DNA of 64,000 nt from NCBI RefSeq assembly GCF_039822205.1, contig NZ_JBAGBW010000007.1:11359-75358 (forward strand), read 5' to 3'. Source of the DNA: Thermodesulfobium sp. 4217-1. GTDB lineage: Bacteria > Thermodesulfobiota > Thermodesulfobiia > Thermodesulfobiales > Thermodesulfobiaceae. This document shows positions 37,481 through 41,016 of this stretch, one piece after another (position 1 is the stretch's first letter; every line of letters begins with the position of its first letter). The position numbers were made by a program, and so were the translations under genes. The notes under the pieces are model-generated. The model saw only the letters and a list, made by a program, of their open reading frames with translations, was not told the origin of the DNA and did not search any database.

Positions 37481-37914
37481 AAATATTACCCCTAATTAAA
37501 TAAAAATTTTAGCTTTCTACAAGCAGCAAAATTTAAAGAGTATAGTTTGGAATTATAACATATATAATTATCAATAAGATCAATAAATAAAAACATTCTA
37601 TAACATTTAACTATTAGAATCAAATTTAACTTCTGCCACCAAAAATCAACCAAAAAATATAAGAAATATGATCGCAAGCTCTGCACCTTTAAAAAAGGAG
37701 TAGTTAGAGCAAAACCATCGCAAAAGTAGTTTTATTTTTATCATGAGATGTATATGATTATTTTTAGCAGGCGCTATCAGTGACAGTTTCAGATTTAAGA
37801 GTTTATAATTATCTTATCGAGATTTTTGAATATTTAAAATACCAAGCTTTTTAGAATTAGAGATTTCAAATGACTAAGTTTAACGCTTGATAAATTATGA
37901 CTGGAGGAAATGCG
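37481..37914. other. 434-bp intergenic region, no gene seen
   Basis: An AT-rich gap between divergent genes. One minus-strand frame of 64 codons (37492-37686) is aromatic/AT-biased with no ribosome site and is dismissed. The right half holds the candidate promoter of the hydrolase. It marks the left border of the accessory island. Confidence 0.6.
37780..37809 (+). promoter_or_regulatory. Promoter candidate of the alpha/beta hydrolase
   Basis: GTGACA (37780-37785, five of six matches to consensus) and a perfect TATAAT (37804-37809) with an 18-base spacer. It would give a leader of about 100 bases before the hydrolase ATG. Confidence 0.55.
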
Positions 37915-38733
37915 ATGGCAAACTTTAAGACGAACGACGGGGTAGAAATTTATTATGATATACAGGGCGAAGGAAAGCCTCTCTTCATGCTGCCTGGCTG
38001 GACATGTACCACGCGTTTCTGGAAGAAAAATATACCCGAGCTTTCCAAAAAGTTTAAAGTAATCAGTATGGATATGCGTGGCCACGGCGAATCAGAAAAG
38101 GTTATGCACAGTCATCGCATTTCTCGCTATGCAATGGACGTAAAAAACTTATTTGATCATTTAGATATCAATAATATTACTGTACTTGGATGGTCAATGG
38201 GCGCCTCTGTTTTGTGGAGCTATATAGAACTGTTTGGAAATTACAGACTTAAAGGCCTTATATGTGTAGATCAATCGCCTGCACAATATACAGGTCCAGA
38301 TTGGGTTTGGGGGCAGAAGGGCTGTTATGATGTAGAAATGTTTATTCATCTTTGTTGCAATATAAAATTTGACCCACGTGGTTGTGCAGAAGGATTGGCA
38401 TTCGCCTGCCTTAATCATAAGCCATCTGCTGAAGAAGCTAAATATATCGCAGATGAAATTTCCAAATGTCCACCTTATGTCCGAATAGAAATTATGCGCG
38501 ACCATACAAATTTAGATTGGCGCGATTTTATTCCACACATCGAGCTTCCCACGCTTGTTTGTGTAGCAAGAAATAGTATGGTTTTTCCCTGGCAAGGCAG
38601 TGCATGGGTAGGAGAAAATATACCCAATTCACAAATAGAATTCTTCGAAAATTCAGGACATATGTTGTTCTGGGAAGAGCCTGAAAAATTTAACAAAGTT
38701 GTGCGCGATTTTGTAGAAAAAATTAATAAATAG
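37915..38733 (+). CDS. Alpha/beta-hydrolase fold protein, probably acquired by transfer
   Basis: 272 residues. The nucleophile elbow is GWSMGA (Ser near residue 90), and the catalytic His lies in SGHMLFWEEP near the C-terminus. The oxyanion region LPGWTCT and the MRGHGES motif resemble the epoxide hydrolase/esterase/haloperoxidase group; the substrate is unknown. ATG 37915 follows TGGAGG, so an in-frame ATG at 37897 is rejected. Arg is mostly CGT/CGC (for example MRGHG, HRISRY, WRDF), unlike AGA-rich neighbours, which indicates foreign origin. Single gene with its own promoter. Confidence 0.85.
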   Translation: MANFKTNDGVEIYYDIQGEGKPLFMLPGWTCTTRFWKKNIPELSKKFKVISMDMRGHGESEKVMHSHRISRYAMDVKNLFDHLDINNITVLGWSMGASVLWSYIELFGNYRLKGLICVDQSPAQYTGPDWVWGQKGCYDVEMFIHLCCNIKFDPRGCAEGLAFACLNHKPSAEEAKYIADEISKCPPYVRIEIMRDHTNLDWRDFIPHIELPTLVCVARNSMVFPWQGSAWVGENIPNSQIEFFENSGHMLFWEEPEKFNKVVRDFVEKINK

Positions 38734-38820
38734 ACTTCTTTACTCACCCATTCTTTCAGAAAAAGATTTTGATTTATTCATATCGTTTAATTCCTAAAAT
38801 ATTTAAATTTAGAAATAACT

Positions 38821-39516
38821 TTAATCATTGTCTCCCTCTAATATTCTGTCAAAATAATCTTTTATCTTTATAAATATCTCTTCTTGTTCGTCAATATTAT
38901 CAACAATTTGTCTTATATATTTATGCTTATCTTGTTCTACGTTGCGCAAATTTTTCGATTCTATATAAAGAAGAATGCTTAATTTTCTTTTACCATATTT
39001 TGTAACAGAATTTAATCTACTTTTATGAAATTTACAAATAAATGACCCTAAAAACTCCCCAATTTCATTAATTTTCTCTTTATTTTTACCTTTAAGCTTG
39101 CTGCATACATAGTCTTCTATTTCGTCGCCATCTTGAGATTCGCTTGGGATTAAACAAAAGTCAAAATTCTTTAAATCTAAATTGTTTTTTTCGTTAATCT
39201 TCTTCTTAAAACCTTCTATCTCTGCAGATGCATCTTTATCCAGTATCAAAAGAAGTGATTTTAGATTATCAAAATAAGGAACATTCGGTAATTGATTAAT
39301 ATAATTCTTTCCATTTAATAAATACAAATCACAAACACACTTATTATCAAAGTATACACACTTGTCCCTATCATTATCTACATTTTCTTTAATAACATAA
39401 TTATTATTTAATTTTTTTATAAGAGACTCAACTAAACAATTAATACTTTTATCCTCAACTGCGATAAGGTGTTGAGTGTTTAAATATTTAAGGAATAATT
39501 CATTCTGCTTTTTCAT
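38821..39516 (-). CDS. TOPRIM-like protein (DUF3226/DUF4435-like), partner of the adjacent ATPase
   Basis: 231 residues. An early acidic residue (AVED, Glu21), the strand-turn LLILDKDAS (Asp93 and Asp95), and PSESQDGDEIEDY after it fit the E...DxD layout of TOPRIM nuclease folds, as in DUF3226 or DUF4435 proteins paired with ATPases. The call rests on motif layout only. Its start is 3 bases from the ATPase stop, so the two are cotranscribed. ATPase + TOPRIM pairs of this kind (split OLD, AbiL-like, PARIS) are anti-phage systems; that function is inferred here. Confidence 0.6.
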   Translation of the reverse strand: MKKQNELFLKYLNTQHLIAVEDKSINCLVESLIKKLNNNYVIKENVDNDRDKCVYFDNKCVCDLYLLNGKNYINQLPNVPYFDNLKSLLLILDKDASAEIEGFKKKINEKNNLDLKNFDFCLIPSESQDGDEIEDYVCSKLKGKNKEKINEIGEFLGSFICKFHKSRLNSVTKYGKRKLSILLYIESKNLRNVEQDKHKYIRQIVDNIDEQEEIFIKIKDYFDRILEGDND

Positions 39517-39519
39517 AAT

Positions 39520-40602
39520 TTATCTAAATTCCATATCTCCTTCTACCATCTCTTTTAGATCCTGTCCGCTAATAAGAGTAGGATAAATCTTCCCATCGTA
39601 CTTTTTATTTATTCTTGTTGCACCTATAGAATCTATATCGTTATCTTTCATAGCCTTAAAGGCTTCCTGTACAAATTCCAGGCTGTGTGTGGCTATAAAA
39701 TATTGAATATTAAGATCCTTAGATAGTCTTAAGATGTATCCAAAAATTTTCTTTTGAATAGACCAGTGAAGGCCGTTCTCTATTTCATCTATAAGAATAA
39801 TTCCATCCATTCGTGTTATAGAAACACCTATAATATAAAATATCTTTAAGAAACCTTCTCCCATTTGGTTAATAGGCACAGAAACATTTTTTCTTTTAAC
39901 AATGACAGTTTGCAAACCAGTTGAAATAAGATCAATATCTTCAATATCGTCTTCAACTATTTTCAGTATATCGATTAATTCTTTTTTCTTATTGGACATA
40001 ACAACTTCACTATAAATTGCATTTATGTGGGTCGAGTTAAACATAAACATTGAAGGTATATAATAAAAACTTAATTTTTTATTAATAGTCGTTTGTGATG
40101 GTAGTACATCAAATGATAGAAAAGGATTTCTATTCATCATATTGCTGTTATCTATTATGCTATGCTGCTGCATCTGGGGTTCTTTACTTTTTTTATCTAT
40201 ATATTCCCATTTAAAAACTACTTCTCGAGAACTATAATCTTTATTAAAATCTCTAAATATTAACAAAGACAATTTATCTTTACCCTCTAAGTCGAATGAT
40301 AATATCATATCCATATTCAAATTTTTAAATATTGTATTCCACAAATCGTCAAATTTTAGCAATGTGGTTCCTAAAAGAGGATTTAAATAAGATTGATAAT
40401 GCAACACCATTTGAAAATTAGCGCTTAGAACTCTGACATCAGGTTCTGAGTAACACAGAAGTAAATATATAGCTTCTAACAAAGACGTCTTGCCTACACC
40501 GTTTTCTCCATACACAAAGTTAATCCTTTTATTTAGAGATTTAACTTCCAAATCATCAAAAGTTTTAAAATTTTTAATCCTAATATTTGAAATCCTACTC
40601 AT
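39520..40602 (-). CDS. ABC/SMC-like AAA ATPase (AAA_15/AAA_21, OLD-type)
   Basis: 360 residues. Walker A is GENGVGKT (32-39). Before Walker B lies a signature-like NQMGEG segment, then Walker B IILIDEIENG with Asp272/Glu273 and a switch His in ATHS. This is the ABC-type ATPase layout of OLD-family and RloA/AbiL-like proteins, with an inserted helical middle region. It starts 'IRIKNFKTFDDLEV', typical of the group. No fused nuclease domain is present; the TOPRIM-like protein 3 bases downstream would supply it. Confidence 0.85.
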   Translation of the reverse strand: MSRISNIRIKNFKTFDDLEVKSLNKRINFVYGENGVGKTSLLEAIYLLLCYSEPDVRVLSANFQMVLHYQSYLNPLLGTTLLKFDDLWNTIFKNLNMDMILSFDLEGKDKLSLLIFRDFNKDYSSREVVFKWEYIDKKSKEPQMQQHSIIDNSNMMNRNPFLSFDVLPSQTTINKKLSFYYIPSMFMFNSTHINAIYSEVVMSNKKKELIDILKIVEDDIEDIDLISTGLQTVIVKRKNVSVPINQMGEGFLKIFYIIGVSITRMDGIILIDEIENGLHWSIQKKIFGYILRLSKDLNIQYFIATHSLEFVQEAFKAMKDNDIDSIGATRINKKYDGKIYPTLISGQDLKEMVEGDMEFR

Positions 40603-40839
40603 AATTTCCTCACACTAAAAAGATTGAAACTACAAAAATCTATCATAAAAAAGCCCCCTAAATAACAATCATAAATCTAATTGATAAAAACTAATTATCT
40701 AGATTATACTTATTAATAGCTCACTGTCAAATAATATATTTTAGGTAAAATTAGTGCCAAAAAATACATTGGTATATCAAGCTAAAAGTTTTAGATTAAG
40801 ACAAAAATTATATATTATTAAATATTTGAGGAGGAGATT

Positions 40840-41016
40840 ATGGAAAAGATCATAAACATAAAAATAGAGAGATTACCAGAAGGGCTTTATCTTGCAACGT
40901 CTGAAGATATTCAGGGCCTTATTGCGCAAGGAAGAACAATAGAAGAAACTACTGAAATAGCCAGAGACGTAGCCAAAAACTTAATTGAGCTTCAAAATAG
41001 ATCACTCTCTTCCTAA
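40840..41016 (+). CDS. HicB/DUF1902-like small protein, orphan antitoxin-like
   Basis: A 58-residue protein with a strong ribosome site (GAGGAGG) 5 bases before its ATG. The single-domain sequence has the HicB-like pattern: EGLYLATSEDIQGL followed by the QGRTIEETTEIARDVAKNL helix, as in DUF1902/HicB antitoxins. No HicA-type toxin is seen in the ~235 bases upstream or just downstream. The stop overlaps priA's end by 4 bases on the opposite strand. Either a solitary regulator or the remnant of a toxin-antitoxin pair beside the defence-like island. Confidence 0.75.
   Translation: MEKIINIKIERLPEGLYLATSEDIQGLIAQGRTIEETTEIARDVAKNLIELQNRSLSS

What the first reader, a model, noticed from the sequence alone, without database searches (positions are those of the whole stretch)
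38821..40602. Two-gene ATPase plus TOPRIM-like module: candidate anti-phage system
An OLD/ABC-type ATPase (Walker A 32-39, Asp272/Glu273) is followed 3 bases later by a protein with Glu21 and a DxD (93/95) TOPRIM-like layout. Paired ATPase + TOPRIM genes act as defence systems in known families (class 2 OLD/Gabija-type, AbiL-like, PARIS), but this pairing with a small stand-alone TOPRIM-like protein is not one I can match to a named type. It sits beside a foreign-codon hydrolase and an orphan antitoxin-like gene, as defence islands do.
Basis: partly seen in the sequence, partly recalled or inferred. Interest (0 to 1): 0.65.

Follow-up and report, generated by a model that had tools for sequence, protein, structure and literature searches.

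The report
Divergent two-gene AbiL-like phage-defence pair
Two adjacent genes in this bacterium encode an ATP-driven sensor and a small nuclease-like partner, a divergent example of an already catalogued type of anti-phage gene pair rather than a new kind of system.

Summary
In detail: on the minus strand a 360-aa OLD/ABC-type ATPase (40602-39520) is followed 3 bases later by a 231-aa protein (39516-38821) with the Glu21 / Asp93-x-Asp95 layout. But the pairing can be matched to a named type. The ATPase hits PADLOC AbiLi (1.2e-52) and PDC-M38A (2.4e-47) over its whole length. In 22 of 26 other AbiLi-model loci from sampled genomes a small DUF3226-type TOPRIM protein (PADLOC PDC-M38B) follows directly, and this genome has two more such pairs. 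The window's own second protein is so divergent that no family model finds it, yet it aligns end to end with the DUF3226 profile (none of 200 shuffles reaches the score), and its predicted structure best matches 2p62 (Z 12.7), then OLD TOPRIM domains. The pair lies in an accessory slot that is empty in one sister genome and holds another gene in a second. Some relatives sit inside Hma operons or beside restriction genes, but the window neighbourhood is not a defence island. Most likely: an ATPase sensor restraining a toxic TOPRIM nuclease (abortive infection, PARIS/AbiL-like). No phage activity is shown.

The parts
39520..40602 (-). OLD/ABC-type ATPase, AbiLi / PDC-M38A family, 360 aa; predicted sensor and restraint of the partner. 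Walker A residues 32-39, signature-like MGEG 247-250, Walker B D272/E273, H306-S307, C-terminal DMEFR
38821..39516 (-). Divergent small TOPRIM-like protein, 231 aa; predicted effector (nuclease). E21, D93/D95, G130/E134
   Evidence: no family model matches
37635..40763 (.). Accessory segment (alpha/beta hydrolase gene plus the pair) between conserved flanks; missing from sister genome G003 and replaced by about 1.6 kb holding a chemoreceptor-like gene in G001

Best explanation
The two genes form one co-transcribed defence module of the AbiL / PDC-M38 kind (AbiLi-type ATPase + DUF3226-type TOPRIM protein). The ATPase assembles into a complex that holds the TOPRIM protein inactive and senses a sign of phage infection; on triggering, the TOPRIM protein is freed or switched on and cuts nucleic acid (host RNA or DNA) with metal ions held by Glu21 and Asp93/Asp95, stopping the infected cell. 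Shown here: gene pair, ATPase family, conserved pairing across many genomes, accessory location. Supported but not proved: TOPRIM fold of the partner. Inferred from PARIS and from AAA/TOPRIM toxin-antitoxin pairs in the literature: complex formation, sensing, toxicity, nucleic-acid cutting.
For: ATPase: PADLOC AbiLi 1.2e-52 and PDC-M38A 2.4e-47, full length; catalytic residues invariant in the family alignment. Pairing: 20 of 386 sampled genomes carry AbiLi-model ATPases; in 22 of the 26 loci other than the window the next gene, overlapping or within about 10 bases, is a small protein with the E...DxD layout; of the partners tested, eight hit Pfam DUF3226 (3e-14 to 8e-69) and a ninth hits PADLOC PDC-M38B (2.5e-59). 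Two further pairs in the same genome. Partner: end-to-end alignment to the DUF3226 profile, residues 12-227, score 24.7 against mean 12.5, s.d. 2.3, maximum 22.8 for 200 shuffles; predicted structure (pLDDT 67, core about 80) matches 2p62 (PH0156) Z 12.7, rmsd 3.4, over 194 residues, then OLD TOPRIM domains 6njx/6nk8 Z 8.1-8.4. Accessory slot. Relatives lie between HmaA and HmaB in two genomes and beside a type IIG restriction enzyme or a DpdE/ZorD-like helicase in two others, while control places gave only methyltransferase, SspA, DndA and similar hits. Literature: the AriA hexamer sequesters AriB, a TOPRIM tRNase (PMC12409363); AAA ATPases neutralise TOPRIM_OLD toxins in E. coli, and AbiL is described as abortive infection through AbiLii (PMC10440598); F. 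nucleatum AbiLii is toxic in E. coli (PMC3985639).
Against: No HMM finds the partner as DUF3226, PDC-M38B or AbiLii. The structure was predicted from an alignment that contains DUF3226 proteins, so it is not independent; without an alignment the model is uninformative (pLDDT 39). In a plain hmmsearch one shuffle of 500 nearly equals the window protein. The window neighbourhood holds no other defence gene. No activity of any kind is shown, and L. lactis AbiLii itself was not toxic in E. coli (PMC3985639).
Confidence: 0.66

Rival explanations
1. The pair is a toxin-antitoxin or genome-maintenance element: the TOPRIM protein is a toxin neutralised by the ATPase, kept by addiction rather than by phage pressure.
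For: AAA/TOPRIM_OLD pairs behave as toxin-antitoxin pairs in E. coli, and one AAA-neutralised pair (with a different toxin) gave no phage protection in a screen (PMC10440598). Relatives occur on small plasmids.
Against: Relatives lie inside Hma operons and beside restriction genes; addiction and abortive infection are not mutually exclusive. At some loci the ATPase remains while the partner is broken or missing, which fits either view.
Confidence: 0.17
2. The second protein is not a TOPRIM protein; an unrelated small effector follows an AbiLi-type ATPase, as happens with other toxin folds (AarT in Acinetobacter guerrae).
For: No family model matches the partner; AAA ATPases of this broad type do take other partners (PMC10440598; the Methanobrevibacter relative L007 has a DUF4276 partner).
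Against: Glu, DxD and G-E motifs in the right order and spacing: the stricter regular expression matches 0 of 103 proteins of similar size from neighbour and control places and 90 of 100,000 shuffles (the expression was written after seeing the alignment); full-length profile alignment; predicted fold.
Confidence: 0.1
3. The pair has a housekeeping DNA-maintenance or cell-cycle role, like the OLD-family ATPase Cran1 of Sulfolobales, which is apparently not antiviral.
For: An OLD-family ATPase-nuclease with an essential cell-cycle role is known (PMC12796447).
Against: Patchy distribution (20 of 386 genomes; two of three sister genomes have no AbiLi-model match), accessory slot, several divergent copies in one genome.
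Confidence: 0.06

Closest known systems
PADLOC PDC-M38 (M38A ATPase + M38B DUF3226 protein)
   Same: Full-length M38A match of the ATPase; same gene order, spacing and partner size; TOPRIM-like partner
   Different: The partner is not detected by any PDC-M38B model
AbiL of Lactococcus lactis (AbiLi + AbiLii)
   Same: AbiLi is the best PADLOC hit of the ATPase; two-gene operon; AbiLii described as a TOPRIM_OLD effector
   Different: AbiLii is described as RloB-type (PMC10440598); the AbiLii model finds nothing in this genome
PARIS (AriA + AriB), proposed class 4 OLD
   Same: ABC ATPase and TOPRIM nuclease encoded by adjacent genes; likely the same working principle
   Different: AriA matches much more weakly (9.8e-25); the partner does not match AriB or DUF4435
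Class 1 and class 2 OLD proteins (P2 Old, GajA of Gabija)
   Same: ATPase and TOPRIM domains of the same folds
   Different: Fused in one chain in those classes; no helicase partner here
Hma-embedded candidates (HEC)
   Same: Two relatives lie between HmaA and HmaB, the position that defines HEC systems
   Different: The window pair is not near an Hma system; the HEC-02A match is weak (1.7e-15)

Membership tests
PDC-M38 (PADLOC) | ATPase matches PDC-M38A | tested here: met
   2.4e-47, residues 4-360
PDC-M38 (PADLOC) | Adjacent protein matches PDC-M38B / Pfam DUF3226 | tested here: not met
   No hit at E <= 1; only profile alignment with shuffles and predicted fold connect it, so it is not filed as a formal member
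AbiL | ATPase matches AbiLi | tested here: met
   1.2e-52 over the full model
AbiL | Partner matches AbiLii | tested here: not met
   No hit; AbiLii model PDLC02337 has no match in the genome at E <= 10
PARIS | ATPase AriA with AriB (DUF4435) partner | tested here: not met
   AriA 9.8e-25, far below AbiLi; no AriB or DUF4435 hit of the partner
Two-gene OLD-like ATPase + separate TOPRIM protein (broad kind) | ABC/OLD ATPase with intact Walker A and B | tested here: met
Two-gene OLD-like ATPase + separate TOPRIM protein (broad kind) | Adjacent gene encodes a TOPRIM fold | tested here: inconclusive
   Predicted model matches 2p62 Z 12.7 and OLD TOPRIM domains Z 8.1-8.4, but the model used DUF3226 rows and the single-sequence model is poor
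Two-gene OLD-like ATPase + separate TOPRIM protein (broad kind) | Conserved pairing across genomes | tested here: met
   22 of 26 other loci
Any anti-phage system | Protects against phage | not testable with these tools
   Needs plaque assays

The most novel reading that the evidence does not exclude
The second protein belongs to a TOPRIM-like effector subfamily that lies outside every current model, with its own substrate or trigger, so that present defence finders miss this branch of AbiLi-partnered systems.
Probability: 0.3. Interest if true: 0.4.

Novelty: new member of a known kind. Interest (0 to 1): 0.27.

Why it matters
It shows that AbiLi-type ATPases carry effectors too divergent for present models, so defence-finding tools see only half of the pair. 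It also gives one genome with three different ATPase/TOPRIM pairs, useful for asking how such pairs divide triggers or targets. It does not reveal a new kind of system.

Tried and rejected
Pfam, PADLOC, NCBIfam and PHROGs for the partner: nothing significant; the Csm6 and CobN hits at 0.025 and 0.003 cover unrelated parts and are taken as chance. PDB by sequence for the partner: only ubiquitin chance hits. tblastn of the partner in plasmids and phages: none. Scans with the ATPase: one distant Methanobrevibacter relative with a DUF4276 partner in genome contigs, none in viral contigs. Partner searched in 98 and 244 genomes: only itself and chance hits inside long frames. Single-sequence structure: uninformative. 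PARIS rejected as the family because AriA and AriB fit worse. A tree of the ATPases puts the window weakly (80/80) with the G025 and G053 copies, on long branches, so it is not relied on. No paper in the library mentions DUF3226.

Full report
What is there. The window is part of contig 7 of a 2.0-Mb genome whose genus has four held genomes; from genome sizes and the lack of other close relatives I infer a Thermodesulfobium-like bacterium, which was not tested. On the minus strand an ORF of 360 aa (40602-39520) is followed after 3 bases by an ORF of 231 aa (39516-38821). G+C falls to 28% over 39-41 kb against about 35% around it.

The ATPase. Pfam gives AAA_15 and AAA_21 at 5e-21. PADLOC gives AbiLi at 1.2e-52 over residues 4-360 and PDC-M38A at 2.4e-47; AriA (PARIS) is much weaker at 9.8e-25. 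Walker A, the G-x-G of the signature region, Asp272-Glu273, His306-Ser307 and the C-terminal arginine are invariant in the eleven aligned sequences. This is an intact ATPase of a catalogued family.

The partner. No model in Pfam, PADLOC, NCBIfam or PHROGs recognises it, nor does tblastn find it in plasmids or phages. But the slot it fills is occupied in relatives by DUF3226 proteins, called PDC-M38B in PADLOC. Aligned with these, Glu21 falls on the invariant Glu of the LLVEG motif, Asp93-x-Asp95 on the DAD motif, and G130/E134 on the G-x-LED motif. hhalign against a profile of 22 partners aligns residues 12-227 with score 24.7; 200 shuffles average 12.5 with maximum 22.8. Among 103 proteins of similar size from neighbour and control places, one scored 87.8 over 162 columns (probably itself a family member, not looked into), one scored 25.7 over only 22 columns, and the rest 20.3 or less; the window protein aligns over 191 columns. 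A plain hmmsearch is weaker: one of 500 shuffles nearly equals the window protein. The AlphaFold model built on the alignment has pLDDT 67 (about 80 in the core), and its best match among solved structures is PH0156 (2p62), Z 12.7 over 194 residues; that PH0156 is a DUF3226 protein is from my own knowledge. OLD TOPRIM domains follow at Z 8.1-8.4. Foldseek itself put 2p62 first at E 0.006, nothing below 0.001. Because the alignment contained DUF3226 rows this is not independent evidence, and the single-sequence model is uninformative.

Conservation of the pair. The AbiLi model was run over 386 genomes: 20 have matches at 1e-25 or better, 27 loci in all. Besides the window, 22 loci have a small E...DxD protein directly downstream; the G025 partner is broken by stops, two G050 copies have no partner, one is truncated. 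Nine partners from these and plasmid loci were tested against Pfam and PADLOC and recognised (a tenth, of the Methanobrevibacter relative L007, is DUF4276-like); the rest were judged by motif and by inclusion in the profile. The window genome has two more pairs, on contigs 31 and 38, both with recognisable DUF3226 partners; the contig-38 pair is shared with sister genome G001.

Context. In sister genome G003 the flanks of the segment are about 105 bases apart; in G001 a 1.64-kb stretch with a chemoreceptor-like gene (458 aa) sits there instead. So the hydrolase and the pair occupy an accessory slot between conserved genes. The HicB-like ORF at 40840 is not clearly part of it: 69 bases just upstream of it are conserved in G001, where the ORF itself is missing. 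The window has no other defence gene near the pair. Around relatives, 123 neighbour proteins matched 82 PADLOC families at 1e-20, against 23 families for 124 control proteins, the latter mostly methyltransferase models plus SspA, DndA and a few others. Attribution of the large neighbours shows the pair lying between HmaA and HmaB in G027 and G094, beside a type IIG restriction enzyme in G244, and near a DpdE/ZorD-like helicase in G098. That is at least 4 of 18 places: an association, not a rule. Only 18 large neighbours were attributed one by one.

How it most likely works. In PARIS the AriA ATPase hexamer holds AriB inactive; a phage protein releases AriB, a TOPRIM nuclease that cuts tRNA (PMC12409363). 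AAA ATPases paired with TOPRIM_OLD proteins neutralise their toxicity in E. coli, and AbiL is taken to act by abortive infection through AbiLii (PMC10440598). An AbiLii of Fusobacterium nucleatum is toxic in E. coli, that of L. lactis is not (PMC3985639). By analogy the ATPase here is the sensor and restraint and the 231-aa protein the nuclease effector. The trigger, the target and any protection are unknown.

Verdict. Real and well spotted, but an already catalogued type of pair with an unusually divergent second protein. By the strict test it is not filed as formal PDC-M38 or AbiL, since neither partner model is met; most likely it works like both.

Noticed in passing
L014 3580-5300 and L015 5149-3385 (contigs 31 and 38 of the same genome): Two further ATPase + DUF3226 pairs; the contig-31 pair is followed by a DNA adenine methyltransferase gene and preceded by a broken-looking second AAA ATPase gene.
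   Followed up: partly
L038 702-2078 (sister genome G001): The slot that holds the pair in the window holds a chemoreceptor-like gene of 458 aa in G001 and is empty in G003: a variable site next to priA.
   Followed up: partly
window 40763-41016: Bases 40763-40831 are 94% conserved in G001 while the 58-aa HicB/DUF1902-like ORF at 40840-41016 is missing there; its end overlaps the end of priA.
   Followed up: no
L107 / L055 (G025): The TOPRIM partner of this pair is interrupted by three stop codons while the ATPase stays open, as would fit a costly effector.
   Followed up: no
L078 and L080: ATPase + DUF3226 pairs lie between HmaA and HmaB, i.e. in the Hma-embedded position.
   Followed up: yes
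L007 5995-7739: Methanobrevibacter ATPase of a related type followed by a DUF4276 (HEC-01B-like) protein: another ATPase + small-protein pairing.
   Followed up: no
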